A stretch of 64,000 nt of DNA from Haloplanus sp. CK5-1 (GTDB lineage: Archaea; Halobacteriota; Halobacteria; Halobacteriales; Haloferacaceae), in assembly GCF_037201915.1 (NCBI RefSeq), contig NZ_CP147505.1:1736001-1800000 (forward strand). The letters run 5' to 3'. A program made the position numbers and the translations under genes. Below are positions 17,771 to 36,887 of the stretch, piece by piece; position 1 is the first letter of the stretch; the number at the start of each line of letters is the position of its first letter. The notes below the pieces were generated by a model. That model ran no database searches, was not told the origin of the DNA, and saw nothing but the letters and a program-made list of their open reading frames with translations.

Positions 17771-18448
17771 TGCCGTGTGCGAGGTTAAATCAGCCGAATT
17801 CAGCCGATAGAGACGATCTATGAGAGGGCAATAGGTAGAGAACGGTAACCGCGGGCGAAATCAATTGGTCGTAGTGACCCCCCGTGTGCGATATGAAATG
17901 CCGGATAGCTCATCGAACAGGCATCGTTATCGAGGCGAATCAGAAGAACTCGGTGAAGCCACCCTCCGTGTGCAAGATGAAAGGGTGGACGTAGTCTCGA
18001 TCCGGATAGTACCGAGCATGTGGCTCAACGATTCCGAGTGAGACGCGATCGCGTCGGTAAGCCACCCCCACACCCCGTGTGCGATATGAAATCGGGAAAA
18101 CGGGAGGAGGGGGTGATTAAGGAGGGAGACTACGAAACACCGGAAACCCACGATTTCACGGAGAAGAGGTCTCAAATACAGCGATGTCAAGATGGACTAT
18201 ATCTCAGGGAAATCTTTACATAGGTGCACTGTCAACCAGAGCCGCACTAGCACTAGAGTCGGTCAAAACGAAACAGTACGTTTCGTGATACGAATGCACT
18301 CGTCCGTGGCTTTCTTCCTCGTGGATTGAGCGTCTTCGCCGACTCTACGTCTTCTCGTGGACTCTCTCACTGAATCCTGTGATCTTCGGATCGTTCGTCC
18401 CTGCCTACCCTCTCGCCAAATTCATATCGCACACGGGGTGTGGGGGTT
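17771..18448. other. Putative replication origin: ORB repeats around an AT-richer segment
   Basis: ORB-like repeats occur at 17771-17790 (weak), 17877-17899, 17960-17983 and 18068-18092, all on the plus strand. One at 18421-18448 is on the minus strand. The last two share an extended CACCCCGTGTGCGATATGAA core and face each other across about 330 bases. Between them lies the palindrome ACGAAAC-N5-GTTTCGT (18268-18286) and AT-rich stretches that could unwind. Inverted ORBs flanking a duplex-unwinding element next to orc1/cdc6 is the standard haloarchaeal origin design. No protein-coding gene is convincing here. Confidence 0.8.
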
Positions 18449-18465
18449 CGACCTCGAGGGAATCG

Positions 18466-18513
18466 TGATTAACCAACAAATCCACTCCGGACGACTCTCG
18501 TGTTGGTTAATCA
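18466..18513. repeat. Inverted repeat TTAACCAAC-N24-GTTGGTTAA, copy 1
   Basis: Arms TGATTAACCAACA (18466-18478) and TGTTGGTTAATCA (18501-18513) are perfectly complementary over 13 bases. The 9-base core halves are separated by exactly 24 bases. The right arm overlaps the polB stop codon, and the left arm is 18 bases beyond the inverted ORB. Two further copies with the same spacing are at 25861-25902 and 43142-43183. Confidence 0.85.
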
Positions 18514-20672
18514 TTCTCCGTGTTCGCGTACGCCGCCAACTCCGGGACCAGCGTCTCCGTGAGTTCTCGACGGATCTTCGACCGATCCCAGTCTATCGGC
18601 GACAGAAGACTTTCGACAGCTCTGATGAGTTTCGTTTCATAGTACGACGCATCGTACGACTCGATCTCCTCGTGAGCCAACGCGACCCGCTCTCGTGAGG
18701 TTTTCTCGTCGTCGACAACTACGTACTCGATGTCCTGTCCCGGGTGGACCGCGAGATCCTGATCGTGAGCGCGTTGCAGCGCGGCTACGTTTTGTGTCTG
18801 ATTAGTATACCCTTCGAGTGGCTTGGAGACACGATTCCGTTCGACGAGCTGCTCAACCGGCACCGTTCCAGCGTGGAGGCGCTTGATCGCGTCCTGAAGA
18901 CAGTCGAGTACGGCGTCCGGAGACCGAGTCGCGTCGAGCCGTTCGAGGCAGTCTCGCTGGATGTCTTCGATGAACGCCGGGGTCGACCGCTGGCGAGCCT
19001 CGATACCGCGTATCTTGAACTCGTCGTCGCCAGCCACTTTGCCGAAGTACTTCGTTAACGCGCCGGCGTCGCTCTCGCGCTGCGGTACGAACGCCACCCA
19101 GTCATAGTGGGCTTCGTGTTCGAGCCGAATCTCGACGCATTCCGTAATCTCCGTCGCGAGCATCTCGAGCTCTTCACGATCATCGTCGTTGACGTCGGGG
19201 TTCGGAGTCACCCAGATCGAATCAACGATGCCGTGGACGACACGCCAGCCGCCGGCTTCTAGGCGTTGTTTCGCCGTCAGCAGAATCTCGCGAGCGAATG
19301 CATTGATCGCCTCGTGGCACTCGATCCGGCCGAACTTCGCGTTGCTGAACCCCTGATACCCGAAGCAGGCGACGAGGATCCACTTCAGCGCTCCCGACCG
19401 TCCCTCGAGTTCCGCTAAGCGGTCCTCGTCGGGGTCGTTCCGTTCCTTCTCGCGACGGATGGCCGCCTTGATCTCGTCGCGTGCGTCGATGATCGGCTGC
19501 AGCACGTCGACGAGGTAGCCCCGGTCGTCGCAGATCGAGTACCCGAGGCCGGGGACGTCCTCGCGGTCGCTGTGGCAGCTACACCGGATGACGTCCGGCG
19601 AGACGTTCCGGGTACAGATGATGTTCGGATACAACGAGGAGAAGTCAAGTTCGTGGACGTTCTCGTGGAGGCCGACCTCGGGCGCGAAGATGAACCCGCC
19701 GCGGTCGGCATCGTGGAGCGTCCCCATCGGCTTGTAGAACTCGTGGCGCCAGGAGTTCCACGGGACGAGGACGCCGCGGTCGTGGGCCTCACAGATCTGG
19801 ATCGCGGTGAGGACGTTCCCGATCGATGCCCACGCAAGCTCTTGGACGGGCTTTTTCGAGCGCGACACGAGATCGAGGATGCCGTCGAGGTTCGTCTCCC
19901 CGTAGAAGAACGTGTTCGACTCGTCGATGATCGCCCGGCCGGGAACGTTGTATCGCGCCGGCGAGTGGCCGACGCGGCCGTAACTCGAGTACGTCGACCG
20001 ACTCGCGAGCTGCTGATAGTCGACGTCCGGCCACCGACTCAGCGAGAGGTCGTCGACGCCGGCGTCCGTCGCCATCTCGTGGAGGGTCGGGACGATCTCG
20101 CTCGTCGAGCAGACCAGGACGTCCGGATCGTGTGCGTCGAGCGCCCCTTGGACAGCGGTCAGAAGATCCGTCGGCGAGCCGGTGACGGTGTCGCCGTCGA
20201 CGGACAGCTCCCCATAGACGCCATTACTTGTTTCGGTCACCGGAACGCTAAGCCGGAGCGTCGACAGCTCGCTCGCGGGTGTCGGATCGGCGCCGGTCTC
20301 CAGACAGTACCGGAACTCTCGCGAGAAGTCGACGTTGAAACAGGCGAGATCCCCGACTGGATAGGCCGACAGCTGGCGTGCCTGCCGGGCGAGTGGGGTG
20401 ACGCGGTCGATGTGGGCAACGTCGACCGCAAGAACGGCCTCCTCATCTCGTCGAAAGCCCGGCCGTCGCGCAATCATCTCGGTTGCGACGACATCCGGGT
20501 GCTGGTCGTACACTGACTGGAGCGTCGTGAGGTCGAGGTCGGACGCTGGGTCGCGAGCAGCGACGTAGAAGCGCGGCGAGTAGTCTTCGTGCTCGGTCGC
20601 GACGGCGCCGTCAGCGGTTGTCTCCCACTCCAGTACGCGGCCGTCGTCCAGAAAGTCGATGCTCAACGCCAT
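18507..20672 (-). CDS. polB: Family B DNA polymerase with altered motif C (PolB2-like)
   Basis: 721 residues. Motif A is DFSSLYPNII near residue 342. Motif B is the KWILVACFGYQGFSNAKFG segment near 427. Motif C reads HGIVDSIWV near 480, where the usual first Asp of DTD is Val/Ile, although the second Asp is kept. The N-terminal region lacks a recognisable DIE exonuclease motif, so proofreading is probably absent. These are features of the divergent PolB2-type group found on archaeal accessory elements. A separately encoded DnaQ-like exonuclease lies at 23796-24440 behind a matching promoter. A role in element replication or translesion synthesis is plausible. Whether the enzyme is active is uncertain. 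Confidence 0.88.
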   Translation of the reverse strand: MALSIDFLDDGRVLEWETTADGAVATEHEDYSPRFYVAARDPASDLDLTTLQSVYDQHPDVVATEMIARRPGFRRDEEAVLAVDVAHIDRVTPLARQARQLSAYPVGDLACFNVDFSREFRYCLETGADPTPASELSTLRLSVPVTETSNGVYGELSVDGDTVTGSPTDLLTAVQGALDAHDPDVLVCSTSEIVPTLHEMATDAGVDDLSLSRWPDVDYQQLASRSTYSSYGRVGHSPARYNVPGRAIIDESNTFFYGETNLDGILDLVSRSKKPVQELAWASIGNVLTAIQICEAHDRGVLVPWNSWRHEFYKPMGTLHDADRGGFIFAPEVGLHENVHELDFSSLYPNIICTRNVSPDVIRCSCHSDREDVPGLGYSICDDRGYLVDVLQPIIDARDEIKAAIRREKERNDPDEDRLAELEGRSGALKWILVACFGYQGFSNAKFGRIECHEAINAFAREILLTAKQRLEAGGWRVVHGIVDSIWVTPNPDVNDDDREELEMLATEITECVEIRLEHEAHYDWVAFVPQRESDAGALTKYFGKVAGDDEFKIRGIEARQRSTPAFIEDIQRDCLERLDATRSPDAVLDCLQDAIKRLHAGTVPVEQLVERNRVSKPLEGYTNQTQNVAALQRAHDQDLAVHPGQDIEYVVVDDEKTSRERVALAHEEIESYDASYYETKLIRAVESLLSPIDWDRSKIRRELTETLVPELAAYANTEND

Positions 20673-20697
20673 CTAGGTCTCTCTGATGTTCGAGTCG

Positions 20698-20730
20698 CCG
20701 ATAAGGTGTGGCGTGTCGTTTCCGGATTTC
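20698..20730 (-). promoter_or_regulatory. Promoter block of polB, shared with the RecA-like/exonuclease operon
   Basis: The plus strand reads CCGATAAG, then GGCGTG, then CG-N-TTCCG and TTTC. The same arrangement occurs at 25727-25759 with 26 of 33 positions identical by my count. On the coding (minus) strand it gives GAAA...CGGAA...CACGCC...CTTATCGG: a BRE-like start and a CTTATCG TATA-like element about 28 bases before the ATG. Its distance to the start codon is nearly the same in both places. Confidence 0.65.
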
Positions 20731-20904
20731 AATGTATGGCCCCAAGAACGACTCTACTGGTGTTTTCTGACCGTTTGTCTGTGTTCCACTACTTCTGGAA
20801 CGATTTCCGGAATTCATCTGGGTGGATTCAGCCGGTGTACTCACCACTGGGGGAACATAGGAATTTGCCAAAAAACTATATTCCTCTGAGTCGTGCGTTT
20901 CTAT

Positions 20905-21495
20905 ATGAACGACCGAAGCCCACCAGATGAGTTTGCAGACGTCAACGAAGCGGTCGGCGAGGAATGGGAAGCGGAAACGACACCCTACGAGCGCATTCGA
21001 CACGTCGTTGCGCATACGTACAGCCCTGTCTCAGCTGATACCGTAGCTGACGATGCACGAACTGCTTCAAAGACCGCCCGAAAGCACCTGAACACACTCG
21101 CAGACGAGGGGTTTGTCGAGACGACACCCGGCGAACATGGCGGAACGCTCTATCGGCGCTCACCCGAATCACTCGTCGTCGAACAGGCTGTTGACATCCT
21201 CGAGCACGTTTCGACTGACGAACTTGTGACGCGAATCCAGGAGATGTGTGAGCAACTCACCGAGTATCGGTCCGAATTCGGCGTCGAATCACCCGAGGAG
21301 TTGGTTGTTGATCAGACGAATCAGACGCTCTCCGAATCCGGGTCTCCAGAGGACGAGATCGACTTAGAGACGATTCGTGAGTGGAAGACGCTCCGCCGAA
21401 ACCTCGCGTTCGCGAACGCTGCGATCTCGATCGGCAATGCCGAGCAATTCGTCGGCACCGGCCATCGCTCAATCGGCGATAGCGGTCTTGCCTGA
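20905..21495 (+). CDS. Winged-helix DNA-binding protein (DUF7342-like)
   Basis: 196 residues. The first 85 residues form a winged helix (VSADTVADDARTASKTARKHLNTLADEGFVETT). The rest is helical and ends in LRRNLAFANAAISIGNAEQF, a tail shared with the protein at 22617-23228. Start chosen at 20905: a TATA-like ACTATATTC lies about 25 bases upstream and fits leaderless transcription. An AGGAAT...ATTCCT inverted repeat (20859-20885) covers this TATA box and may be an autoregulatory operator. Unlike the next two HTH genes it has no small partner gene directly behind it. It is probably a repressor or antitoxin. Confidence 0.8.
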   Translation: MNDRSPPDEFADVNEAVGEEWEAETTPYERIRHVVAHTYSPVSADTVADDARTASKTARKHLNTLADEGFVETTPGEHGGTLYRRSPESLVVEQAVDILEHVSTDELVTRIQEMCEQLTEYRSEFGVESPEELVVDQTNQTLSESGSPEDEIDLETIREWKTLRRNLAFANAAISIGNAEQFVGTGHRSIGDSGLA

Positions 21496-21598
21496 GTGAG
21501 CAAACTGGGTGGGGCTGTCGACCTGACAGTATGGGAAGACAAAAGAATATATTTTGGTCAGAGAAAGAAATATGTGGTCTTAGTCCGTTGGTCGAAGT

Positions 21599-22117
21599 AT
21601 GTCAGATGACGCCCGTCGCGACGGACCGCCGTCATTCGACCGGCCATTCGAAGGCCAGGACACGAAACAGCGCGTGTACGGCGCGGTCCTCCATGCGCGG
21701 GAGCCGATGACGGCCGCCGAGATTGCCGAGCGTGCGGACTGCTCCGAAGAGTCCGCACGGACGCATCTGTCCTTCTACGCTGACCTTGGCATCGTTATCC
21801 ACCACGATGGCCGTCCAGCTCGGTACGAGCGCAACGACGACTACTTCGAGTGGCGCCGAGTGAATGAGTTGGCGAACGTACACACCGTCGAAGAACTACA
21901 GGCCCGGGTCTCGGAGTTCACCGACCAAATCGAAGCATACCGCGAGGAGTACGACGCTGACTCGCCCGGTGACGTCGATGTTCTCGAATTCGACGCCGAG
22001 CGCGTTGACGACGTGTATGCGGACCTCGGGGACTGGGCGACCGCAATCGAGGAGCGCCGGCTCCACGAGCGTGCCCGCCAGAAGGAGACTAGCTCCACAG
22101 CACCCTCCCACGGCTGA
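21599..22117 (+). CDS. Winged-helix protein, likely antitoxin/repressor of a two-gene module
   Basis: 172 residues. A winged helix spans about 20-80 (MTAAEIAERADCSEESARTHLSFYADLGIVIHHDG) and a helical region follows (VEELQARVSEFTDQIEAYREEY) with the same spacing as in the neighbouring HTH proteins. The next gene begins 2 bases after the stop. A promoter-like AAAGAATATATTTTGG lies about 50 bases upstream. The arrangement of a DNA-binding protein followed at once by a small RW/HF-motif protein is repeated at 22617-23707, which points to a toxin-antitoxin-like or regulator/effector unit. This role is inferred from gene order. Confidence 0.78.
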   Translation: MSDDARRDGPPSFDRPFEGQDTKQRVYGAVLHAREPMTAAEIAERADCSEESARTHLSFYADLGIVIHHDGRPARYERNDDYFEWRRVNELANVHTVEELQARVSEFTDQIEAYREEYDADSPGDVDVLEFDAERVDDVYADLGDWATAIEERRLHERARQKETSSTAPSHG

Positions 22118-22119
22118 CA

Positions 22120-22551
22120 ATGGTACCGTCCGACGACGGCGCGAGTCCCGCGCCACTGGACCGTGCGGTGTTAGAGCGGATACAGTCTCGATTCGCTGGC
22201 CATCAGATGTTCAAAGCAGTGGACCTCGTCGAGGAAGGGAAGTTGTATCTCCGTGTCGAACTCGCCGGTGATTACTACCCGGGTGATGTGTCTGCTCGGT
22301 TTGAGATTCGATGGTATCGCAACGACGATTTCACCGTTCACTATCAAGAAGAGCACCAAGAGAGCGTGTGGAAGTGTCGGTGGGATCGTCACCTCAGCAG
22401 TCACAACGAACGAGATCACTTTCATCCGTCGCCGGACGCAAGTCGTCCCGACGCAGAAGACGCACAGTGGCCCCAAGACCATCGTGACGTCTGCCGCCTT
22501 GCCCTCGATTACGTCGAAGAGCGAATCGAAACTCTGTGGGAACAGCAGTGA
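22120..22551 (+). CDS. Small RWY/HYQEEH/DHFHP protein, TumE-like candidate toxin
   Basis: 143 residues. A β-rich middle has FEIRWYRNDDFTVHYQEEH and then CRWDRHLSSHNERDHFHPSP, with conserved Arg, His and Asp residues that could form a ribonuclease-like active site. The end is a helix (HRDVCRLALDYVEERIETLWE). The same layout occurs in the protein at 23225-23707. The pattern recalls the DUF6516/TumE toxin family, which also ends in a His-rich strand and pairs with an HTH antitoxin. I cannot confirm homology without a profile search. It is two bases behind the HTH gene and surely co-transcribed. Confidence 0.7.
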   Translation: MVPSDDGASPAPLDRAVLERIQSRFAGHQMFKAVDLVEEGKLYLRVELAGDYYPGDVSARFEIRWYRNDDFTVHYQEEHQESVWKCRWDRHLSSHNERDHFHPSPDASRPDAEDAQWPQDHRDVCRLALDYVEERIETLWEQQ

Positions 22552-22616
22552 ATAGCCAGGTTAACAAAATACTATCCCACAGATTATTATGCTGTCCTCG
22601 CATTGTTTAGCATATC

Positions 22617-23228
22617 ATGTCCGAAGAGATGCCCTCGCCCTATCGAATGGTCTCGGATGGCGGGACCGAACACCGCGACGTAAACGATGTCGTCGAAGAA
22701 GAATGGCTTGAGGAGACGACGCCGTTTGAACGAGTGTACGAAATCATCCGCACTACCTACGACCCTGCATCCGCCGGAGAGATCGCCGACCGTGCTCGCG
22801 TCTCGGCAACCACGGCGCGAAAGCACCTGCGAACGCTCGAAAGCGCTGGCGAAGTAACAACCTCCCAAGACGGGCAGACGACGTGTTACCGACGATCGGA
22901 AACGGCGATTGTCACTGAACATGCACAGTCGCTCCTCGCGGAACTGTCCCCCGAAGAGATCTCGTCCGGTATTGCTGATATGAAGGCACAGATACAGGAG
23001 TGGCGTGAGGAGTATGGTGTCGATTCCCCCGAAGAATTCGCCCGTGAACTAGACGTCGACGACGTCGACAGCGACTACGGTGCCCTCCTCACAGAATGGC
23101 AAACGACGCGACGCAACCTCACACTCGCACAAGCAACACTCGCAATCGGTGAAGCAAGCAATACTGGCCATCTTACTGACACAGATACCGACGATGAGGG
23201 TGATAGCGATGCATCCATCGTCGTATGA
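22617..23228 (+). CDS. Winged-helix protein (DUF7342-like), second module
   Basis: 203 residues. N-terminal NDVVEEEWLEETTPFERVYEIIRTTY and the winged helix SAGEIADRARVSATTARKHLRTLESAGEV align well with 20905-21495. The end TRRNLTLAQATLAIGEAS is the same helical tail. The start ATG at 22617 has a TATGCT...AGCATA inverted repeat just upstream (about 22590-22615), a possible operator. Its stop overlaps the start of the next gene (ATGA), a sign of translational coupling. Probably the repressor/antitoxin half of the pair. Confidence 0.8.
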   Translation: MSEEMPSPYRMVSDGGTEHRDVNDVVEEEWLEETTPFERVYEIIRTTYDPASAGEIADRARVSATTARKHLRTLESAGEVTTSQDGQTTCYRRSETAIVTEHAQSLLAELSPEEISSGIADMKAQIQEWREEYGVDSPEEFARELDVDDVDSDYGALLTEWQTTRRNLTLAQATLAIGEASNTGHLTDTDTDDEGDSDASIVV

Positions 23229-23707
23229 CCAACGACAAGACCCCTTCTCAACATTCGCAGCCGGTCGAGCAATCGGAGGTGTTTGGACCTATTGACGCCG
23301 GGGCGTTGCGTGAGATTCGAGACCTGATCCTAGAGCAGGAGCCGCTGGCCGAGACAGCATCACTAGATGACCCGTTGAATCCACAGACGCTCTCGGTCGA
23401 ACTGTCCGATGGAGTCGGTGCAGCGTCAACTGCTCGAATCGACATCCGGTGGAGTCTAACCGAAAACTATGCGATCCACTACACGGACGACCGGCATCAG
23501 AATTTCCGGTTCGATTGTCACCCGAAACCGGACGCGCCGAGACGACACTTCCATCCACCACCCGACGCTCCGAGTCGTCCCGTCGAGAAATCCTGTATTG
23601 CTGTGTCTGAGACCGGCCTTGTGACGCGAGCGATTCTTCAACGGTGGCGATACGCCTATGCTCACGAGACGTTCGAAGGAATCAACGACGCTGAGAACCC
23701 ACCATAG
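23225..23707 (+). CDS. Small RW/HYTDD/HFHPPP protein, second TumE-like candidate
   Basis: 160 residues. The core has IDIRWSLTENYAIHYTDDRH, then FRFDCHPKPDAPRRHFHPPPD, matching the motif order of 22120-22551 although overall identity is low. The N-terminal 60 residues are variable. The start overlaps the stop of the upstream winged-helix gene by ATGA. Two diverged but parallel modules in tandem suggest separate acquisition or an old duplication, and effectors under diversifying selection. Toxin activity is inferred only. Confidence 0.68.
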   Translation: MTNDKTPSQHSQPVEQSEVFGPIDAGALREIRDLILEQEPLAETASLDDPLNPQTLSVELSDGVGAASTARIDIRWSLTENYAIHYTDDRHQNFRFDCHPKPDAPRRHFHPPPDAPSRPVEKSCIAVSETGLVTRAILQRWRYAYAHETFEGINDAENPP

Positions 23708-23795
23708 CCCGACTCGTTGACGACAGGCGTGTTCTCCTTGTCTTACAGCGGTGGATGGCGGGGACTCGTGTTTTCGGGACGGATACAACTTGCTC

Positions 23796-24440
23796 TCAAA
23801 CGACTGGTTCGAGTGACTTCATCGAAAAATCTGACTTCGAGCAATACCGTTCTGCAAGCTCCATCAACGCTCGGGTCCGTCGAATATCGGCGACGTTGTG
23901 GATGATAAGTGGCTCGTAGGCACCCTTCTCCCATACGGTGACTGCCTCGCTACTGTCGGTGAATGGATCACGCTCGTTCAATCCGGCACCGATCAGTTCC
24001 TCGTAGACGCCACTCAGTGTGTCTTCACTCGTATTGAAGCGTGTCTCGAAGACGTCCATCACGTCGACGTATGGCAACGTGCCAAACGGCCACTCAAGCC
24101 CGTGCGTACAGAGCCGTGTGCGGAGGAACGGGAGGTCGAATCCTCCGTTCCACCGTTCACCGTTGTACGCAACGAGCTTTGCATCACGTTGGGTGAGTGT
24201 CGACGTGACAAACGTCGCCAGTTCGTTCAGGAGTTCCTGTTCGCTGTCGTGGAGTGAGAGCTGTACAGGTGTCTGGAGTGTGTCGTTGAGCCGATTTGCG
24301 AGGCCTGTTTGTGGTGCCGTTCCGGTATGGAGAAACACTCGCGACGAGACCGGCGAGTCGAACCCAACTACTGTGAGTTCACCATCGGCCTGAAATCCCG
24401 TCGTTTCGATATCGAAGGCAATCGTCGTCAACCCCGTCAT
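23796..24440 (-). CDS. DnaQ/RNase H-like 3'-5' exonuclease
   Basis: 214 residues with the three exonuclease motifs: Exo I FDIETTGFQ (residues 9-17), Exo II YNGERWNGGFDLPFL near 95, and Exo III HNVADIRRTRAL near 180, so all catalytic acidic residues are present. It resembles the exonuclease part of family B polymerases. It is the last gene of a three-gene minus-strand operon, overlapping the upstream gene by 4 bases. The element's PolB seems to lack proofreading motifs and shares a promoter block with this operon, so this protein could supply exonuclease activity in trans. That partnership is inferred. Confidence 0.8.
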   Translation of the reverse strand: MTGLTTIAFDIETTGFQADGELTVVGFDSPVSSRVFLHTGTAPQTGLANRLNDTLQTPVQLSLHDSEQELLNELATFVTSTLTQRDAKLVAYNGERWNGGFDLPFLRTRLCTHGLEWPFGTLPYVDVMDVFETRFNTSEDTLSGVYEELIGAGLNERDPFTDSSEAVTVWEKGAYEPLIIHNVADIRRTRALMELAERYCSKSDFSMKSLEPVV

Positions 24441-24757
24441 TCCACACCTCCAGTGTCACCTTCGGCAGACGATTGCTGCTGTTCGCCCACAGTTTCCGAA
24501 AGCCGTTGCTCAAGCTCTGCTAGGCGCTCTTCGTGGTCGTCGAGGCGGGCCTCCTGTTCGAGATCGACGCTGAGTAGCGCCGGCAGCAGCGGATTCTGGT
24601 GGTTCAACAGCCCGCTCGCGTCGGCGTGCTCGCGGGCGTACTCGAACAGCCGGTCAAAGCGCGGCTGGTCGCGACGCCGCAGTGCCCGCCGGAACGCCGC
24701 CCAGCGCTCTTCGATGGCCCGGAGCGCATCCCGGTACGTCGGGTTCGTGCGCCCCAT
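24437..24757 (-). CDS. Helical/coiled-coil hypothetical protein in the exonuclease operon
   Basis: 106 residues. The start MGRTNPTYRDALRAIEERW is the ATG at 24757, two bases after the stop of the RecA-like gene; a longer frame upstream would overlap that gene. It is mostly helical, with FRRALRRRDQPRFDRLFEYAREHADA in the first half and a coiled coil in the second (ARLDDHEERLAELEQRLSETV). It probably bridges proteins. The family was not recognised. It overlaps the exonuclease start by 4 bases. Confidence 0.72.
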   Translation of the reverse strand: MGRTNPTYRDALRAIEERWAAFRRALRRRDQPRFDRLFEYAREHADASGLLNHQNPLLPALLSVDLEQEARLDDHEERLAELEQRLSETVGEQQQSSAEGDTGGVE

Positions 24758-24759
24758 CG

Positions 24760-25704
24760 CTATCGGCCTCCTGTACCGCTCGCCGTCCACGCATCGAGCA
24801 GGGGGTCCGCGGTGGCCGACACCGTCTCACCGTCAGCTGTGACGCCCGTCCCGACATCCTCCGGGGTCGGCGTCGACGCCGCCGGCGTCGTCGGTTCCAC
24901 GCCGACCTGCGTGGCGCGTGCCGCGAGCAGCTGCCGCCAGTACGCGAACGTCGTCTGGTAGTACGCGCCGTCGTCGACGGGATAGACGAGCGTCTCGAAG
25001 TCCTCGCCGACGACCCGTGGCCCCATTCGAGTCTGCTCGCACTCCAGGTGATGATCGGCGACCGTCGCGATCGGTTCGGTGAATTCGTTTCGTTCGTTTC
25101 GCGTAACGAGCACCGGGATGTCGTACCCATCGGCGTAGGTCGCCAACCGGGCGAGAGTTCGGGCCTGGAGGGTTTTCGCGTAGGTCTCGCCGAGGGTATC
25201 GTCGGCGCGGTACTGGGCGTCCACGGCCGGCGCAACGATGAGGGCGGGTGTGTGGGGGGATGTGTCCTCGTCACGGCCTGATCCCCCTCGACCGGCCGCC
25301 CCGACGTCGGTGGTGGACATCTGGATCGACTTGTTCACTGCCGTCGGGAGATCACAGACGGCGCCGTAGTGCTGGTAGGCGGTGAATCCGCGTGCCACGT
25401 GGATTCGGTTGAGCAACCGTTGACTGGGCGCGATCTGAGCGAGTGTCGTCGTCGTCGCGTGTCCGTTTGCGTCGACCCAGAAGGCGGGCCCGTCGTGCAG
25501 GAGGAGATGGTCGAGCACGAGCGACTGCAGGATCGGGACGCCGCGGCCCCCCTCGACGTCGAGCAGCGTGATGCCGTCGTCGAGCTGCGGCAACAACATC
25601 TCGTTCGTAGCCGGATCGGCCTGGTCAGCGAGGGACCGATTGCGGTCAGCGCCCCGAGTTGGCTGGTCCACCGCCAATCGGTTCGCCGTTGAGTGTTCTC
25701 CCAT
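24760..25704 (-). CDS. RecA/RadA-like fold protein lacking the Walker A lysine
   Basis: 314 residues. LLDVEGGRGVPILQSLVLDHLL (residues 46-67) sits where RadA/KaiC proteins have GxxxxGKS, but the Lys and Ser/Thr are missing. It is followed by PAFWVDANGHATTTTLAQIAP and, later, PALIVAPAVDAQYR, where the Walker B strand would be. The middle is RecA-like in strand order (TYADGYDIPVLVTRNERNEF). This suggests a nucleotide-binding-deficient RecA paralogue, perhaps a structural or recombination-mediator subunit. It is the first gene of the operon with the 106-residue protein and the DnaQ-like exonuclease. The fold assignment is my reading and is less certain than the operon. Confidence 0.68.
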   Translation of the reverse strand: MGEHSTANRLAVDQPTRGADRNRSLADQADPATNEMLLPQLDDGITLLDVEGGRGVPILQSLVLDHLLLHDGPAFWVDANGHATTTTLAQIAPSQRLLNRIHVARGFTAYQHYGAVCDLPTAVNKSIQMSTTDVGAAGRGGSGRDEDTSPHTPALIVAPAVDAQYRADDTLGETYAKTLQARTLARLATYADGYDIPVLVTRNERNEFTEPIATVADHHLECEQTRMGPRVVGEDFETLVYPVDDGAYYQTTFAYWRQLLAARATQVGVEPTTPAASTPTPEDVGTGVTADGETVSATADPLLDAWTASGTGGR

Positions 25705-29023: not shown

Positions 29024-30667
29024 TCAGTCCAAGTCTTGCACTCCTGTCGAACCACCCTCACCGAAATCAGCCCCTTCTGATCGTGTCGGTTCGCGCTGCC
29101 GTTCATCGTAGGCATCATGCCACTCTTCGATGACTGGCCGGCTTCCAGCTCCGTGGGGTGTGCGTCGCTGTCGAACCTGGATCAAGGCTGGCGTGTTCAT
29201 CGCATCCCCTGAGACGACTGCTTGCCCGGGCGTCAATCCTGGAAGTTCTCTGAGAACATCTTCGCCGGCGGCTTCGACAGAATTCTTGATCGCGTCTTGG
29301 TCGTTCGGGTTCTGGATTTGCATCGAGATCTGCGTCCCACACTGCGATAGTACGTCTTGATCGATTTTCGACGGTCGTTGACTGATAATTCCGAGTCCGA
29401 ACCCGAACTTGCGGCCTTCGGATGTGATCGTCCGCATGATTCGTAACGACGGAGCATCACCAGAGGCCGGGGCAAACCGATGACCTTCCTCAAAGAGCGC
29501 GAATATCGGATGGTCGATTGCAGACTCGCGGTCCCGTACGTCATCGAGTCGCTCTCGATACATCCGTCGTAAGAGAACGGTGGTAATGAGTTGCTGATCC
29601 CATCGATCCAGCGTGTCCATCTGAAGCACTGTACACTGTCCTGGATCCACAATCTCGTCCAACGGGACGTTTTCTTCGGGATGGAAGAGATCATTCCGCT
29701 CGATCGACCGTCGGAGTCGCCACTCTAAGGCACCAACACTTGCGTCATCGTCACCGTAAATCCGCTCCATTTCGGCAATGAGTTCGTCTACGCCCCACGT
29801 CCGACTTTCCTGTCTCTGCATCGCGCGCCACGCCGTCGAAAGCCGCTCTTGCATCCGATTACTCGGATTGTCCAAGATCGCCATCACGTCGCCGATCTCC
29901 AGTTCAGAGATGCGAACGCGAAGTCGCTCCGGGTCATAGTACACGATATCCGGCTCGTACCCATCTTCATCCCGGAAGGCCGCCTCGCCCTGCATGTCAG
30001 CCAAGGTATCGTACTCGCCATGCGGATCGAACACGAGTAGTGATGCGCGTGCACTCGGCCGCATCATCTCCTCGATCAAGACAGACGCGGTGTAGGATTT
30101 CCCGCTACCAGTCGATGCGAGGATCGCCAAGTGTGTCGAGGCGAACTCCTCGATTGGGATGTGAATGTTCGTCGCTTCAGCGGGACGGTTCAACAGCCAC
30201 CCGACGTGCGCGATGCCGTCCAGGTCAGCCACATCCGTACTGTCCGTTTCACACCCGAGATTCGGAAGCACCGTTTCGAGTTGCTGATCCGGTGCAATCG
30301 ACAGCGTTGTTCCCGGGTCCGGGAGCTGTCGCGGATTGGCGAACGTAGTCATGTCGGTGTCGTAGTATCCGATGACCGTTGCCGTCAGCCGGTACAACTC
30401 GGTGTCATCGGTCGGCACACCGAGTGTCGCCGCGACCGTCTCCGGGCCGACTTCTGGATCGGCGAGGAACCCCTCCGGCAAGCCTCTGATCAGTTCGCGG
30501 TTCGTGACACGGGCAAAGACCGACCGCTCGCCGCCATCGGCCGAGACGGTGTACGTGATGAACTCGCCCGTCTTGATCGACCGGTCCGATGGGGTTACGA
30601 ACACGAATTCGTTCGGATCTTCACCCGGTCCAGCGACGGTCCCGACGACGTCCGAGCGGCCAGCCAT
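29024..30667 (-). CDS. herA: HerA-type bipolar DNA translocase/helicase
   Basis: 547 residues. The N-terminal 130 residues form a HAS-barrel (VGTVAGPGEDPNEFVFVT). Walker A is ASTGSGKSYTA near residue 181, and Walker B is the HerA-type IFALFEEGHRFAP near 385, where the EEGH replaces the usual DExH. LRIMRTITSEGRKFGFGLGIISQRPSKID follows, with the sensor and arginine-finger region. HerA forms a hexamer that pumps DNA for the NurA nuclease during end resection. The start is ATG 30667, whose A is the last base of the previous stop (TAATG). Last gene of the mre11-rad50-nurA operon. Confidence 0.92.
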   Translation of the reverse strand: MAGRSDVVGTVAGPGEDPNEFVFVTPSDRSIKTGEFITYTVSADGGERSVFARVTNRELIRGLPEGFLADPEVGPETVAATLGVPTDDTELYRLTATVIGYYDTDMTTFANPRQLPDPGTTLSIAPDQQLETVLPNLGCETDSTDVADLDGIAHVGWLLNRPAEATNIHIPIEEFASTHLAILASTGSGKSYTASVLIEEMMRPSARASLLVFDPHGEYDTLADMQGEAAFRDEDGYEPDIVYYDPERLRVRISELEIGDVMAILDNPSNRMQERLSTAWRAMQRQESRTWGVDELIAEMERIYGDDDASVGALEWRLRRSIERNDLFHPEENVPLDEIVDPGQCTVLQMDTLDRWDQQLITTVLLRRMYRERLDDVRDRESAIDHPIFALFEEGHRFAPASGDAPSLRIMRTITSEGRKFGFGLGIISQRPSKIDQDVLSQCGTQISMQIQNPNDQDAIKNSVEAAGEDVLRELPGLTPGQAVVSGDAMNTPALIQVRQRRTPHGAGSRPVIEEWHDAYDERQREPTRSEGADFGEGGSTGVQDLD

Positions 30668-31332
30668 TAGACCACCCCTCGGCGTTCTCGTGCTTGCCAC
30701 TGCACGTTCTGTTCAACGACATCAAGGACCCGCTGGTTCGGGTCATCCTCCGGAAGGAGTTCCCGTAACCGATCAATGAGTGTGACGATGACCTCCGCAC
30801 CGAGGTCTCCTGCGATATCCAACAGTCGATCCATGTACGCCAGCTGAATCTGGTCGTCGATTGAGTGGAAGGAGCGCGTGATTTCATCCGGACAGTGGAA
30901 GACGGTATCATCGACTTCCAACGTCCACCGCGGCATCTGATGCGTCGGATTCGTGATCGTCCGGTCATCAGTGATGACGGCAGTCCCGAGCAGTGCGACA
31001 CCGGCGAGTGTCGTGCGTTCCTCGATGTAACCCGGGGTGAATTGCGCCTGATCGTCTTGAGCTAATCGTGGGCCAGTACGACCCTGGTCAGGATCGATCA
31101 GTTGCGTATCGTAGATCACGCCCATGACCGCGTGCTCGGTCCCGTCGATGGTTTTCTCGATGAAGACTGGTTGGCCGAACTCGCGTTCGTGGAGTTCCGG
31201 TGGTCGCTCACAGTCTCGTTCCTTGTAGACCTCGACGACATAATCTAAGTGACTATTCGAAGAGACGACACTGCCAATCTGAACGCACGAATCGAGGTCT
31301 AACTGGTCGCCGGCTGTCGAGTGATCGGTCAT
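30667..31332 (-). CDS. HAS-barrel-like accessory protein between nurA and herA
   Basis: 221 residues. The first 120 residues resemble a HAS-barrel: QIGSVVSSNSHLDYVVEVY, AVMGVIYDTQLIDPDQGRTGPRL, FTPGYIEERTTLAGVALLGTAV. The rest is helical (QIQLAYMDRLLDIAGDLGAEVIVTLIDRLREL). No nuclease or ATPase motif is seen. HAS-barrels in HerA mediate contact with NurA, so a free-standing copy could be an adaptor in the same complex. The stop overlaps the herA start by one base, and the gene follows nurA by 73 bases. The homology call is by eye. Confidence 0.7.
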   Translation of the reverse strand: MTDHSTAGDQLDLDSCVQIGSVVSSNSHLDYVVEVYKERDCERPPELHEREFGQPVFIEKTIDGTEHAVMGVIYDTQLIDPDQGRTGPRLAQDDQAQFTPGYIEERTTLAGVALLGTAVITDDRTITNPTHQMPRWTLEVDDTVFHCPDEITRSFHSIDDQIQLAYMDRLLDIAGDLGAEVIVTLIDRLRELLPEDDPNQRVLDVVEQNVQWQARERRGVV

Positions 31333-31405
31333 TGGGTTCCTCCTGTCCTGTTAGGTAGTGCTGCAGCGGTGTCTCTGGTTGGTGAACTGCTGGTGTTGTG
31401 GTGAA

Positions 31406-32671
31406 TCATCGTCGTCGAAGCTCCTTGCTGAGTGCTTTGGCGTTCCATTCGAGCGGCACGTCGTTCGAGTCAGCCCACCGTTGGACGACTCGCTGGAACT
31501 GCTGGCGGTCCTGATGGTCTAACACGGCGTCGCTATCGACCTGTTGCAGGATTTCGGGGTACCCCCGCCCGATCCCTGCTTCTGCCCGGACAATGTCGAC
31601 GGTGTACTCGTACATCGAGTCGTAGGCGTCAGGCCCGTCACTGCGGCAGAGCCAGCCAGGGAACTCGATCCGGTCGAGTCCAGCGCCTGGCGGTACATTC
31701 AGGTACGAGAACAGGATGTCGTCGCGGAATTCGTACGCTTCCCCGTCGTACGTTGCCTGCAACGCGTCGATGCTCCCGTCGCGTTTCGAGATGAATGGAA
31801 TCGTCGTGTCGCCCCACGGACTCATCAGCTCGGTCAGTACGTGGGCGTCGGGAATAACGCGATCAGTATCGAATTCATCGGGCAAGAGCAGTCGCGTCAT
31901 TTTCACGAGTTCGGTGGCGGACGACCCGGCAACGTACCCGACCAGCGGAACCTCGTGGTGTTGACTCGCCGCGATGACGCGACTCAGCGTCGAGATGTAC
32001 CGCTCTCTGGTCTCCGGCTTCAGCGGGTTCGCAAACGATGCGATCAACGGTCCGTCGTAGAACGCGACCGGCGTGTGGTCGATGTCACCTGCATCACGCG
32101 CATCGGCTATGGCCGAGAGTTGGTCAATGAGGAGCTGGCCTTCGTGCTCGAACCGGTGATGGCCGACGAGTTGGGAATCAACGAACCGGTAGTCACCGTC
32201 GCTCGATTCTTGCGTGACCTCGTCAGGCGTCAAGAGTCGTCCCTCAACGCCGCGGTCGAGCCGTCCCTCGGCGTGATGATGGTTGACTGCCCACGCCGCT
32301 TGAACGTACGCGAGCGGGACATTGAATTGTGTTGTCGGCGGGAGCTGTGACCCATCGACAGCCAGCACCGGGACGTCACGAATAATCTCCCGCGCCCATT
32401 TGTTGACCTCCTCGTGATTCTCCCACCCGTCACTCTCCGGGTACGGGACAATGATGCTGTCCACGGCATCAAACTCGCCCGTCGGAGACGCCCCTGGATA
32501 TGATGCATCCTGCAGCGCCGCGCGAATGTCATCGGACGTCCACTCGTCGGGCAATCGCTGAAACGCATCTCGATATCGCTCAACGATCCCCGTATCGTCT
32601 TCGAGATACGACTCGATCGTCTCAACGTTCGCCTCCAATTCGGACGCAACACCGCGTTTATCGATCGGCAT
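31406..32671 (-). CDS. nurA: NurA 5'-3' nuclease
   Basis: 421 residues. The NurA catalytic start VLAVDGSQLPP is near residue 102, with its metal-binding Asp. Later segments PVAFYDGPLIASFANPLKPE (second acidic site) and VPLVGYVAGSSATELV belong to the family core. The N-terminal 100 residues are an added helical region. NurA works with HerA, Mre11 and Rad50 to make 3' overhangs for recombination. The stop lies 73 bases before the HAS-barrel gene, and the start overlaps the rad50 stop (TAATG). Confidence 0.88.
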   Translation of the reverse strand: MPIDKRGVASELEANVETIESYLEDDTGIVERYRDAFQRLPDEWTSDDIRAALQDASYPGASPTGEFDAVDSIIVPYPESDGWENHEEVNKWAREIIRDVPVLAVDGSQLPPTTQFNVPLAYVQAAWAVNHHHAEGRLDRGVEGRLLTPDEVTQESSDGDYRFVDSQLVGHHRFEHEGQLLIDQLSAIADARDAGDIDHTPVAFYDGPLIASFANPLKPETRERYISTLSRVIAASQHHEVPLVGYVAGSSATELVKMTRLLLPDEFDTDRVIPDAHVLTELMSPWGDTTIPFISKRDGSIDALQATYDGEAYEFRDDILFSYLNVPPGAGLDRIEFPGWLCRSDGPDAYDSMYEYTVDIVRAEAGIGRGYPEILQQVDSDAVLDHQDRQQFQRVVQRWADSNDVPLEWNAKALSKELRRR

Positions 32672-35382
32672 TAATTGACCGATACCTCCGACGTCTGCCG
32701 GTCTTTCTCGACGGTGATCGTGTAGTCAGTCATCGAATCGAACGTCTGGTCGTGACTAATGACCGTGAGTTGCTCGAAGCTATCCAGCTGTTTGAGCTGA
32801 GAGACGAGATTCCGTTTCTTTTGCCGGTCGAGATTCGCCGTTGGTTCATCTAGGAATGCGACGCCGACTGATGCCAACTGCTCTAAGATCGCCAGCCGCA
32901 CGGCGAGTGCAGCCGCCATCTTCTCCCCACCACTCAACGTCGAAAACGACTTCTGAACATCTGCGTCGTGCACGACGATCTCGTAATCGCTCGTCCACTC
33001 CAGCGTCTCAGCCGACGCGCCGCGAATCGAGCGGAACAACTCATTCGCCCGGGATCCAATCCGGTCGGTGATGATCTCCCGCATCTTCGGCCCGGCTTCC
33101 CGGACGTTCTCTCGCACCCACTCGGCGAACTGCTGATCCGCTTTGAGTTCTTTCAGTTGTTGGAGTTTCTTCTGACGCTCCTTTAGCTTCGTCTCCAATT
33201 CCGCGATTTCCTCGCGCTCTTTCCGCAAGTTCTCCTCCTTCTCATCAAGCGTCCCTTTAGCCCGCTGGATCTCTCGCTTGAGGTCCTCGATTTCTGACTC
33301 TAGCGTCTCGAATCGCTCCTCATCGAACGACGCTTTCGTTTCCTCCAGTTCTGCCTCTGTTTCCTCGAGATTCGCTTCGAGGTCCGCAAGCTTGCTCTCC
33401 AGTTCGTCGACTCTCTCCTGCCGCTCTTCCACCTGCGACGCCTGCTGCTCGTGCTTGATATACGTCTGATACGCCGATTCCGTCTCCTCCAGCGTCTCCT
33501 TGGCCTCCGCCAACTCTTCATCTAGGCCGTCAAACTGCTCCAACTCGTCTTTGATCTCCACGAGCGCCGACTGTTCCTCCTCCAATTTGGTGCGCTTTTC
33601 GTCCAACTCTGCAGGTACATCAGCATGGTCGTCGACCCGGAACTCGGCAGTCTGGTACTCATTGTACGTCTCCTCTAAGTCGTCTCGCTCGGCTTCGAGA
33701 TCAGGGAGGGCCGTCAATTCGTCTTCCAAGTCCGCTAACTCCACTTCTTTCTCTTCCTTCTCGGCTCGCAGGTTTTCGATCTCATTCTCCAACGATTCGA
33801 TTTTGTCTCGATGAACAGGCAGCTTATCGGCACGCTGCTTGACTTCCCTCGCCGCCTCACGCTGCTCACGAAACTCAGCTAGTTCTTCAGCCAGTTCCTC
33901 GCGTTCCGTCTCAATCTCCTCGATCCGGGCTTCACGCTGTCCGATTGCCTCCGACCGATGGTCTTCGTCTAACGGCCGGTCACACGTTGGGCACGGCGCA
34001 TCAACATCCGTATCACGCAACCGATCCAGTTGATCTTCAAGTCGCTCGCGCTCGCTTGCCAGCTGCTTCCGGCGCGCCTCCCGGTCGTTGATCTCACCGG
34101 AGAGCGTTTCCGGATCCGTTGTTTCCTCCCACTCCGCTTCTATCTCCGCGATCGTTTCCTCTACCGACGCGATTTCCTCTTCCCTCTCTTCAATCTCCTC
34201 GACCAACTGTTCGATGTCTTCCTCCAACGCATCAACGTCGTCCTCACCGTCTTTCAGCGATTTGATGCGCTCATCGAGTTCCTCGTACCGCTCCTTCTCC
34301 GCTTCACGCGCCTCCAGTGTCTCCCGGGCGTCTTCCAGTTCTTCCGAGTCCTCTTCCAGTTGTTCGACCTCGAATCTGATTTCCTTGACCGTGTCTTCCT
34401 GTGCGTCGTGTTTCTCAGCCAGCTTGTCTCGTTCAGCCTCTCGTTCCTCTAATTCTTCCTGCCGCTGGCTCGCTTGCTTGTACTCACGGTACCCCTCACG
34501 ATTCGCCTCGCATTTCTCCTGTGCCTCTTCGGCCGCTGCGAGTTCCTCCTTCGCCGTCTCCAAATTGCTCTCCGTCGAGTCGATGTCCCGCTCCAGCGAG
34601 TCAACCTCTTGATCAAGCCCTTCGATTTCCTCTTCGACAGCCTCCAGTTCTTCGTGCTCAGCCTCCTTCTCCGACAATTCACTTGATTTCCGCTCGATAC
34701 GCGCCTCAATCGCCGAAACGTCATCGGCCAGTGATTCCGCTTCCGCTCGCTTGTCCGGCAGCCCCTGTACCTCGCCGGTGAGCGTATCGATGTCGCTACG
34801 AAGATCCTGTTGCTGGCTCTCGATCGCGTCCGGGATGTCCTTGAGCGTCTTCCACGATTCCTCGTACGCGTCCAGATTCAGCAGCGCATCGAACGTTGCC
34901 TTGCGATTCTTGGGCGTTTGCGAGAAGTCAGATAGGAACCGTGTCTGAGGCACCCCGATACTAGAACTCCAGAGACTGCTCAACTCGTCCCCATCTTCAA
35001 CATCGAAGCGCGCGCACAACCAGTCCACAAGCCCCTTCTTGGAATCGATATCCTGATCCACCCACTCGTTAGCATCCGGATCATACCGGTGGACGCCGTA
35101 CTTCGATCGGCCAACCGATCGAACAACCCTGTACCGTTCCGTTCCATTCTGCGTGTCTTGCTCGAACGTGATTTCGACGGTGCCCGAACTCGCGCCTTCC
35201 CGCACGAACTCCTTGTTGTTGAACGGGAGCGAGTCGAACAACGCGAACCCGATAGCCTCCTGTATCGTCGATTTCCCGGCACCGTTCTCACCGAGAATCG
35301 CCGTTACGCCGCCTTCGATCGGCACGACGGTCCGGTCGGCGTACGACTTGATGTCTTCCAACGCGACCTCGGTGATTCTCAT
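32671..35382 (-). CDS. rad50: Rad50-like SMC ATPase
   Basis: 903 residues. Walker A GENGAGKST is at 31-39. Two very long acidic coiled coils run from about 170 to 790 and meet at a zinc hook CPTCDRPL near residue 464. The ABC signature TLSGGEKMA is near 815 and Walker B VGVAFLDEPTANLD near 845. The first residues MRITEVALEDIKSYADRTV are typical of Rad50. It pairs with Mre11 to tether and process broken DNA. Its start overlaps the mre11 stop by 4 bases, so both subunits are translationally coupled. Confidence 0.93.
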   Translation of the reverse strand: MRITEVALEDIKSYADRTVVPIEGGVTAILGENGAGKSTIQEAIGFALFDSLPFNNKEFVREGASSGTVEITFEQDTQNGTERYRVVRSVGRSKYGVHRYDPDANEWVDQDIDSKKGLVDWLCARFDVEDGDELSSLWSSSIGVPQTRFLSDFSQTPKNRKATFDALLNLDAYEESWKTLKDIPDAIESQQQDLRSDIDTLTGEVQGLPDKRAEAESLADDVSAIEARIERKSSELSEKEAEHEELEAVEEEIEGLDQEVDSLERDIDSTESNLETAKEELAAAEEAQEKCEANREGYREYKQASQRQEELEEREAERDKLAEKHDAQEDTVKEIRFEVEQLEEDSEELEDARETLEAREAEKERYEELDERIKSLKDGEDDVDALEEDIEQLVEEIEEREEEIASVEETIAEIEAEWEETTDPETLSGEINDREARRKQLASERERLEDQLDRLRDTDVDAPCPTCDRPLDEDHRSEAIGQREARIEEIETEREELAEELAEFREQREAAREVKQRADKLPVHRDKIESLENEIENLRAEKEEKEVELADLEDELTALPDLEAERDDLEETYNEYQTAEFRVDDHADVPAELDEKRTKLEEEQSALVEIKDELEQFDGLDEELAEAKETLEETESAYQTYIKHEQQASQVEERQERVDELESKLADLEANLEETEAELEETKASFDEERFETLESEIEDLKREIQRAKGTLDEKEENLRKEREEIAELETKLKERQKKLQQLKELKADQQFAEWVRENVREAGPKMREIITDRIGSRANELFRSIRGASAETLEWTSDYEIVVHDADVQKSFSTLSGGEKMAAALAVRLAILEQLASVGVAFLDEPTANLDRQKKRNLVSQLKQLDSFEQLTVISHDQTFDSMTDYTITVEKDRQTSEVSVN

Positions 35383-36887
35383 TCCTCCACCACCCCCTCC
35401 GTTTCAGCGTCTGCGTCGCCACGGGCCGTGTCACCCGACGTCTCCTCGTCCGTTTCAGCATCGGCGAACGGATCCTCTTCTATATCCAAAACCACGTCGT
35501 CCGCCAACTCCGGGAACAATTCCTGTCGCGCTGAACTCACCGCGTCACGGATATCCTCGACTGCTTCGTCGGCCTGCGCCATCTGGTGGGCGTTCCCTAA
35601 CACGTCAGCGACATCGGCTGCGCTGTCATCGTAGATCGATTCCTTCGCAACCGTCTCGAAAACGCGGTGTTCCAGCGCAGCCGTGTTCAACTGCCCATCT
35701 TTGAACACCTCGTCCTCATCGATTTCCGAGATGAGTTGCTGCACGTTCGCCGTCCGAATTCCCGTATTCACCTGTACGTGCAGCGCATCGCACGCATCTT
35801 CCACCCACGCCGCGAGTTCATCCGTTCGGAGATCTCCACGGCTGAACTGCAACGTCCCGGTGAATCGGAGGTCGATAATCGGCGCTCGCGGCTCACCCCG
35901 TGCCATGAACGCGTCCTGACTGCAGTACTCCGTCATATCAGCCTGCACGTCTTTTACATGTTCCTGAAACGCAGTTTCGAGGTCTCCGGGTGACTCGTGG
36001 GCGGTCACCTCGAATTCAATCCGGTAGTACGGCCGTCGCTTCGTTGGGTAATGCTCCACCTCAAACTCGGAGGTGTCACTACCGGCATCGGCTCCGCCAA
36101 TGTCGAGTGTGACTGAGTAGTAGCCGTGTTCCCACTCGGCTCGCCCTTCGCGGGTGTTATGTGCTTCCGGTGACCCGGGGTTGTAGATCCACCCACCAGA
36201 CTCGTACCGCTTGTGAATGTGTCCAAGTGCTAGGTAATCCACGACGTCCTTCAATTCCCGTAGCTCGCCGTGGGTTACCGTCCCGCCGAGTGTCGGGACC
36301 TCATCTTCAATCCCGAAATGCGCCAACAACACGGTCCATGCCGGCTCACCATGCATCTCATTCGTCTCCTGGATTCCATTCGCCACTTGCTGGAGCGCCT
36401 GGCCCGTCTTCGCGCCGCGCCACTGCAAGCCGAATACGCGAATCGGCCGGTCCAAGTCCGCGACATCGATATCATAAAACCCTGCAGACTGCCCCGGTTC
36501 GTCCGGATCGTACGGGTTGAACCACGCTGTCTCTGGATCCGCATTCAGTTCGGCCTTCAGGAACACTATGTGCCCGCGCTGATGCAGGTAATTCAACCAC
36601 GTCACGTCCCGCGGCGTCAGGTTTTCGTCGTGATTGCCACGCGAGACTAACACTGGCACCTCATCAGGGATCCGTTCGAGTTCTTGTTCGACCTGATGCA
36701 GGATCTTTGGCCGCAAATCACGCGAGTGGAACAGGTCACCCGGTAACAGAATCGCATCGGTCCCGCGCTCCTCGATCATCTCTTGGAACGCAGCACGTGT
36801 GGTTGATACCATGTCGTCCTCGCGTTGTTTCAACCCGTACTGTCGATGGCCGAGATGTGTATCGGCGATGTGCGTGAGCGTCAACAT
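35379..36887 (-). CDS. mre11: Mre11-like nuclease
   Basis: 502 residues. Metallophosphoesterase motifs are in order: ADTHLGHRQYG (residues 8-18), LLPGDLFHSRD (46-56), SRGNHDENL (81-89), VLLAHFG near 175 and LGHIHKRYE near 220. All metal ligands are present. The C-terminal 200 residues are acidic and include a long disordered tail (EEDPFADAETDEETSGD). First gene of the five-gene operon mre11-rad50-nurA-HAS-herA. An upstream TATTTAATA (about 36977-36985) may be its promoter, giving a leader of roughly 70 bases. Confidence 0.93.
   Translation of the reverse strand: MLTLTHIADTHLGHRQYGLKQREDDMVSTTRAAFQEMIEERGTDAILLPGDLFHSRDLRPKILHQVEQELERIPDEVPVLVSRGNHDENLTPRDVTWLNYLHQRGHIVFLKAELNADPETAWFNPYDPDEPGQSAGFYDIDVADLDRPIRVFGLQWRGAKTGQALQQVANGIQETNEMHGEPAWTVLLAHFGIEDEVPTLGGTVTHGELRELKDVVDYLALGHIHKRYESGGWIYNPGSPEAHNTREGRAEWEHGYYSVTLDIGGADAGSDTSEFEVEHYPTKRRPYYRIEFEVTAHESPGDLETAFQEHVKDVQADMTEYCSQDAFMARGEPRAPIIDLRFTGTLQFSRGDLRTDELAAWVEDACDALHVQVNTGIRTANVQQLISEIDEDEVFKDGQLNTAALEHRVFETVAKESIYDDSAADVADVLGNAHQMAQADEAVEDIRDAVSSARQELFPELADDVVLDIEEDPFADAETDEETSGDTARGDADAETEGVVEE

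What the first reader, a model, noticed from the sequence alone, without database searches (positions are those of the whole stretch)
29024..36887. Compact mre11-rad50-nurA-HAS-herA operon on accessory DNA of a halophile
Five overlapping or nearly touching genes encode the complete end-resection set. Linked herA, nurA, mre11 and rad50 genes are known as a hallmark of thermophilic archaea. Finding them in one operon in a plasmid-like region of a haloarchaeon, with an extra HAS-barrel-like gene between nurA and herA, is unusual. The set could be a repair module of the replicon, or an anti-phage or anti-plasmid nuclease system.
Basis: partly seen in the sequence, partly recalled or inferred. Interest (0 to 1): 0.66.

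Follow-up and report, generated by a model that had tools for sequence, protein, structure and literature searches.

The report
Wandering DNA-end processing operon in haloarchaea
Five genes for a complete machine that handles broken DNA ends, of the type found in relatives of methane-making archaea, move between salt-loving archaea as a unit, often beside antiviral genes, and in some species are the only such set left.

Summary
On the minus strand, mre11-rad50-nurA-HAS-herA form one tight operon with all catalytic motifs. The window lies in a 3.24 Mb contig, in a low-GC island rather than a plasmid; the canonical haloarchaeal mre11-rad50 lies elsewhere in the same genome.

The refuting condition is not met. 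The module's NurA occurs in 40 of 391 Halobacteria. All five genes are consecutive in 39 of 43 loci; three of the others are cut by record ends and one has a broken mre11. The contexts differ, and the module tree mixes host families, so it moves horizontally as a unit.

Two readings change. The HAS gene is not an oddity: the same order is the resident operon in non-halobacterial genomes of the phylum, and the predicted structure is a HerA-type HAS barrel. And the module is not simply a defence system: five genomes have no other Mre11-Rad50, so it can take over the housekeeping role, although 19 of 42 loci border known defence genes (Argonaute, Shango, Tiamat, GmrSD, McrB-like).

Most likely it is a mobile, methanogen-type DNA-end processing machine, able both to resect breaks and to degrade foreign DNA ends. 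Recent papers call nurA and herA 'not apparent' in halophiles. Activity is untested.

The parts
35379..36887 (-). mre11 (502 aa): phosphoesterase nuclease; all Mre11 metal-site motifs present (D9, H11, D51, N85/H86/D87, H190, H223, H225)
   Evidence: >=97% invariant across 41 copies
32671..35382 (-). rad50 (903 aa): Walker A G31-T39, zinc hook C464-P-T-C467, signature S817-G-G-E820, Walker B D845-E846, H877
   Evidence: >=97% invariant across 43 copies
31406..32671 (-). nurA (421 aa): NurA nuclease; D106-G-S and Y205-D206-G motifs invariant
   Evidence: PF09376 80 bits; invariance
30667..31332 (-). stand-alone HAS-barrel protein (221 aa): HerA-like N-terminal barrel plus two long C-terminal helices, no ATPase domain
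   Evidence: AF2 model pLDDT 82.3, pTM 0.79; the 25 best VIA-align entries are all HerA or the related TdpA, Z 9.2-13.0, then F1-ATPases
29024..30667 (-). herA (547 aa from the conserved ATG): hexameric DNA-translocase ATPase with its own N-terminal region; K190 (Walker A), E393/E394
   Evidence: DUF87 125 bits; start by conservation; motif invariance

Best explanation
The operon encodes a complete methanogen-type DNA-end processing machine that moves horizontally through Halobacteria as one five-gene cassette. Proposed working: Rad50-Mre11 binds a DNA end and trims or opens it; the HerA hexamer, with the separate HAS-barrel protein as an extra adaptor at its HAS face, pumps duplex DNA into the NurA dimer, which degrades it. 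The result is resection for recombination at the cell's own breaks, or degradation of DNA with free ends (linear foreign DNA, or DNA cut by neighbouring defence nucleases), much as bacterial RecBCD serves both purposes. Shown here: gene content, order, intact motifs, co-inheritance, horizontal transfer, phylogenetic link to the resident operon of non-halobacterial relatives, and genomes in which it is the only Mre11-Rad50. Inferred: enzyme activities, the adaptor role of the HAS protein, and any defence role.
For: Same five-gene order, consecutive on one strand, in 39 of 43 loci. Pairwise identities of the five proteins correlate at r 0.955-0.986. Catalytic and metal-binding residues invariant in nearly all copies, at least 97%. 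Mre11+Rad50 tree: module and non-halobacterial operon proteins form one side (100) against canonical haloarchaeal Mre11-Rad50 (100), module itself one clade (99). In non-halobacterial genomes of the phylum the same operon order occurs and the operon-type Mre11 is the only full-length Mre11. Host families interleave on the module tree, 14 label changes against a minimum of 5. Five module genomes have no other Mre11 or Rad50, which argues for a general DNA-end function. PMC7599335 independently inferred loss of nurA and replacement of herA and mre11 at the base of the haloarchaeal lineage.
Against: No biochemical or genetic data exist for this set. The patchy spread, plasmid locations and defence neighbours in many loci would also fit a dedicated defence system. 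Some haloarchaea tolerate loss of mre11 and rad50 (summarised in PMC12977600), so being the only Mre11-Rad50 does not prove an important housekeeping role. The adaptor role of the HAS protein rests on fold similarity alone. The tree is a quick search with some long branches.
Confidence: 0.62

Rival explanations
1. Dedicated anti-virus or anti-plasmid system: the five genes act mainly as an immune nuclease that senses free or cut DNA ends of invaders, alone or as the degradation arm of neighbouring systems such as long Argonaute with PLD nucleases.
For: About 10% patchy distribution, plasmid copies, horizontal transfer. 19 of 42 loci have a recognised defence gene close by: pAgo-type proteins in 8, GmrSD in 3, Shango in 2, Tiamat in 2, plus OLD, McrB-like and Eco57I/SNF2 genes; PLD proteins sit near 15 loci. 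Random control loci gave fewer PADLOC families (64 against 248). Rad50 resembles Lamassu LmuB.
Against: The same operon is the resident set in relatives and the only Mre11-Rad50 in five haloarchaea. No single partner gene is constant. This copy has no recognised defence neighbour. Genome-level co-occurrence with Piwi is not raised (about 5 of 40 against 41 of 351 by the same search, although that search misses some pAgos).
Confidence: 0.27
2. Replication/recombination module of the mobile replicon that carries it: it processes ends or stalled forks of the island or plasmid.
For: In this window it lies about 11 kb from Orc1/Cdc6 and PolB genes and near ParA and integrases; several relatives are on plasmids.
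Against: The Orc/PolB neighbours are not conserved at other loci; many copies lie in main chromosomes; it is the only Mre11-Rad50 in some genomes.
Confidence: 0.08
3. Ordinary resident operon inherited vertically in Halobacteria and repeatedly lost, not a mobile module.
For: It derives from the same ancestral operon type as in the sister lineages, and within one genus (Halococcus by named relatives) flanks such as the MutY-like gene c15 are conserved.
Against: Copies 91-93% identical in different families, while copies within the window's own genus are as low as 60% and 42% identical; 14 family changes on the tree; unrelated flanks.
Confidence: 0.05

Closest known systems
Archaeal mre11-rad50-herA-nurA operon (Constantinesco 2002, 2004, as cited in PMC7776575 and PMC12977600; HerA-NurA of Thermococcus kodakarensis)
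   Same: Same four enzymes in one operon with intact active sites; HerA related to NF040819 (172 bits, below its 970-bit cut-off)
   Different: Has a fifth, stand-alone HAS-barrel gene; order mre11-rad50-nurA-HAS-herA; in Halobacteria it is accessory, mobile and usually second to another Mre11-Rad50
Resident operon of non-halobacterial genomes in the same GTDB phylum (L160-L167 here)
   Same: Same five genes in the same order, including the HAS gene; nearest in the Mre11-Rad50 tree
   Different: There the operon-type Mre11 is the single full-length Mre11 of the genome; in Halobacteria it is patchy and horizontally moved
Canonical haloarchaeal Mre11-Rad50 (NF041030, NF041035)
   Same: Same enzyme pair
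   Different: Separate deep branch, no nurA or herA beside it, only about 25-35% partial identity to the module proteins
SIR2-HerA and HerA-DUF4297 antiphage systems
   Same: HerA hexamer with HAS barrels coupled to an effector enzyme
   Different: Effector here is NurA plus Mre11-Rad50; no SIR2 or DUF4297 gene; HerA far below the antiphage HerA cut-offs (106 and 103 bits against 850 and 800)

Membership tests
Archaeal HerA-NurA-Mre11-Rad50 end-resection operon | mre11, rad50, nurA and herA linked in one transcription-direction cluster | tested here: met
Archaeal HerA-NurA-Mre11-Rad50 end-resection operon | Intact catalytic motifs in all four enzymes | tested here: met
   Invariant columns over 41-43 copies
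Archaeal HerA-NurA-Mre11-Rad50 end-resection operon | Common descent with the operon-type Mre11-Rad50 of other archaea | tested here: met
   Tree of 40 Mre11+Rad50 pairs groups it with non-halobacterial operon copies, support 100; thermophile sequences were not in the tree
Archaeal HerA-NurA-Mre11-Rad50 end-resection operon | End-resection activity | not testable with these tools
   Needs biochemistry
HAS-barrel (HerA-ATP synthase barrel) fold, 221-aa protein | Fold match to HerA N-terminal HAS barrels | tested here: met
   The 25 best VIA-align entries are HerA or TdpA, Z 9.2-13.0, followed by F1-ATPases; sequence-profile comparison alone was inconclusive
Canonical haloarchaeal Mre11-Rad50 (NF041030, NF041035) | Score over the curated cut-off | tested here: not met
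   46 bits against 550; 132 bits against 1000
HerA antiphage systems (NF042943, NF042944; SIR2-HerA, HerA-DUF4297) | HerA over the antiphage cut-off and a SIR2/DUF4297 partner gene | tested here: not met
   106 and 103 bits against 850 and 800; no such partner in the operon
Lamassu (LmuB) | LmuB with an LmuA effector partner | tested here: not met
   Rad50 hits LmuB at 1.7e-36, but no LmuA among the neighbours scanned

The most novel reading that the evidence does not exclude
In Halobacteria the ancestral resection operon, lost from the main lineage, lives on as a mobile immune module: a five-subunit, RecBCD-like machine whose stand-alone HAS-barrel protein couples Mre11-Rad50 end sensing to the HerA-NurA DNA pump and which destroys DNA opened by co-located systems such as Argonaute-PLD, while still able to take over chromosomal repair.
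Probability: 0.25. Interest if true: 0.75.

Novelty: new variant of a known kind. Interest (0 to 1): 0.5.

Why it matters
Reviews and a 2026 study state that nurA and herA are absent or not apparent in halophilic archaea (PMC7776575 for H. volcanii; PMC12977600). A complete linked set is in fact present in about one tenth of sampled Halobacteria, and in some it is the only Mre11-Rad50. That offers natural replacement experiments for an open question: what HerA-NurA does together with Mre11-Rad50 in living archaea, and whether DNA-end processing is recruited for immunity. It also adds a conserved stand-alone HAS-barrel subunit that the in vitro HerA-NurA work read here did not include.

Tried and rejected
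1) HAS as a relative of HerA by sequence: hhalign gave no significant score and a profile search of solved structures gave only a weak match to 2dla (E 0.024), treated as chance; structure comparison settled it. 2) Viral origin: no HAS homologue in viral contigs, no NurA in phage records. 3) Simple insertion of the island: the two flanks are far apart in other genomes of the genus, so no clean empty site could be shown. 4) Genome-level association with Argonaute by Pfam Piwi: not enriched, but the loose first look missed pAgos seen directly in at least four genomes (G095, G151, G224, G373), so it is inconclusive. 5) PADLOC on neighbours against random control loci: more and stronger defence families beside the module, but the counts are per family, not per protein, so no p-value is claimed. 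6) The Halanaerobiaceae MAG hit (L094) was set aside as a mis-binned haloarchaeal contig; the cyanobacterial hit (L119) is a stand-alone gene without the operon. 7) Papers describing this module as a defence system: none found, within an open-access library only.

Full report
What is there. On the minus strand the window holds mre11 (35379-36887), rad50 (32671-35382), nurA (31406-32671), a 221-aa gene (30667-31332) and herA. Pfam and NCBIfam identify four of them clearly; the 221-aa protein has no family. Gene junctions overlap by 1-4 nt except for 73 nt between nurA and the 221-aa gene. In most relatives HerA is 547 aa, so its start is the ATG at 30667, not the GTG at 30700.

The fifth gene. 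A profile comparison with HerA was inconclusive. An AlphaFold2 model built from 25 homologues (pLDDT 82.3) matched HerA N-terminal barrels: the Foldseek hits with E below 0.001 are HerA or HerA-complex entries, and the 25 best entries by VIA-align are HerA or TdpA (Z 9.2-13.0), followed by F1-ATPase barrels, as expected for a HerA-ATP synthase (HAS) barrel. It is a HAS barrel with C-terminal helices and no ATPase domain. In solved HerA-NurA complexes the HAS barrels are the NurA docking face (PMC9960219), so an adaptor or extra-ring role is the simplest guess; that is inference.

Not the canonical set. The window is G000:C1:1736001-1800000 of a 3.24 Mb contig. The canonical haloarchaeal Mre11 is elsewhere (1,000,284, 592 bits), followed by its Rad50. 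The window's Mre11 and Rad50 score far below the haloarchaeal cut-offs (46/550 and 132/1000). A second, unlinked NurA-domain gene (2,867,092) and a HerA-like gene (2,876,820) also exist.

Distribution and movement. The window NurA has relatives in 40 of 391 sampled Halobacteria, spread over several families, and on plasmids of Natrinema, Halobaculum, Halorussus and strain DL31. Of 43 neighbourhoods, 39 have the five genes consecutive in the same order on one strand; three of the others are cut by record or contig ends and one (L058) has a broken mre11. Pairwise identities of the five proteins correlate at r 0.955-0.986. The module tree needs 14 changes of host family where 5 are the minimum: 91-93% identical copies sit in different families, while copies in the window's own genus are as low as 60% and 42% identical. 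The module is inherited as a unit and moves horizontally.

Where it came from. A phylum-wide search with the HAS alignment found homologues in 14 genomes outside Halobacteria. Their loci show the same order, complete in L161, L164, L165, L166 and L167 by my ORF calls, and in L160 and L162 with mre11 located directly upstream by a separate search. In those genomes the operon-type Mre11 is the only full-length one. A tree of 40 Mre11+Rad50 pairs puts the haloarchaeal module (one clade, 99) with these sequences (100) and apart from canonical haloarchaeal Mre11-Rad50 (100). A published reconstruction infers loss of nurA and replacement of herA and mre11 on the way to haloarchaea (PMC7599335). Together: the ancestral-type operon was displaced in the main line and is now found as a wandering cassette. 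The genomes from the phylum search are unnamed here; calling them methanogen relatives rests on their place in the phylum and on that paper.

Replacement. Canonical Mre11 is over the cut-off in 32 of 39 other module-bearing genomes, but in G002, G073, G157, G236 and G253 the module holds the only Mre11 and the only Rad50. In genus g41 (Halococcus, going by named relatives at the same contig positions), four genomes have only a divergent canonical Mre11, one has both, and five show only a module-type Mre11, one of these on an incomplete genome. So the cassette can stand in for the resident pair.

Company it keeps. Within a few kb of the module: long Argonautes in 6 loci (PADLOC pAgo E 0) and a divergent pAgo (4.5e-51) in two more; a PLD-nuclease-like protein in 15 loci (compare the haloarchaeal Argonaute-PLD systems of PMC11442185); a BrxC/D-type ATPase scoring as Shango SngB (2.8e-172) in two; TmtA in two; GmrSD in three; OLD, McrB-like and Eco57I/SNF2 genes in others. 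By my count 19 of 42 loci have such a gene nearby. The system names Shango and Tiamat for the PADLOC codes Sng and Tmt are from memory. Random loci from the same genomes gave fewer PADLOC families. None of 13 of these proteins has a hit in the 184 kb around the window copy, which instead lies in an island with Orc1/Cdc6, PolB, ParA, integrases and transposases.

Interpretation. The intact motifs, the resident role in relatives and the replacement cases point to a general DNA-end processing machine. The mobility and the company point to selection on mobile and defence islands. A machine that pumps and degrades duplex DNA from ends serves both, as RecBCD does in bacteria (established knowledge); I rank this above a purely defensive or purely replicon-serving role. 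No activity has been shown.

Noticed in passing
L075:6419-8707, L077:11186-13423: Divergent Argonaute-like protein (PADLOC pAgo 4.5e-51) upstream of mre11 with the c9-c10 pair that elsewhere accompanies long pAgo; not listed for these genomes in the Pfam Piwi genome search.
   Followed up: partly
L049, L050, L051, L053 (upstream of mre11): Conserved divergent block DEAD helicase - HHH/RNase_H_2 nuclease - long pAgo - small protein - c9 (unknown 239 aa) - AAA/wHTH protein, next to the module in genomes of three families (c10 missing in L050).
   Followed up: partly
G000:C1:2867092-2868024 and 2876820-2877530: Second NurA-domain gene and a HerA-like gene, about 10 kb apart and not in an operon; Pfam NurA also rings in Haloferax volcanii although a review states NurA is absent there.
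   Followed up: partly
L119:4875-5564: Stand-alone relative of the HAS protein (32-34% identity) in a filamentous cyanobacterium, with no herA, nurA, mre11 or rad50 among the called genes on its 11.6 kb contig.
   Followed up: partly
L094: 3 kb contig filed as a Halanaerobiaceae MAG carries HAS and herA of haloarchaeal type (82% HAS identity); probably mis-binned.
   Followed up: no
L058 (Halorubrum vacuolatum, G347:C20): mre11 of the module appears broken into two frames while the other four genes are intact.
   Followed up: no
window 53492-54733 and 56242-57495: Two highly similar integrase genes in tandem, plus a third integrase at 45294-46427, in the same island.
   Followed up: no
window 16386-25704: Orc1/Cdc6, PolB, wHTH genes, an RNase_H_2 exonuclease and a 314-aa protein without family: a plasmid-like replication cassette.
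   Followed up: partly
L087:12265-12353: About 88-bp palindromic element found many times at 83-90% identity in genomes of the genus; no Rfam family.
   Followed up: partly
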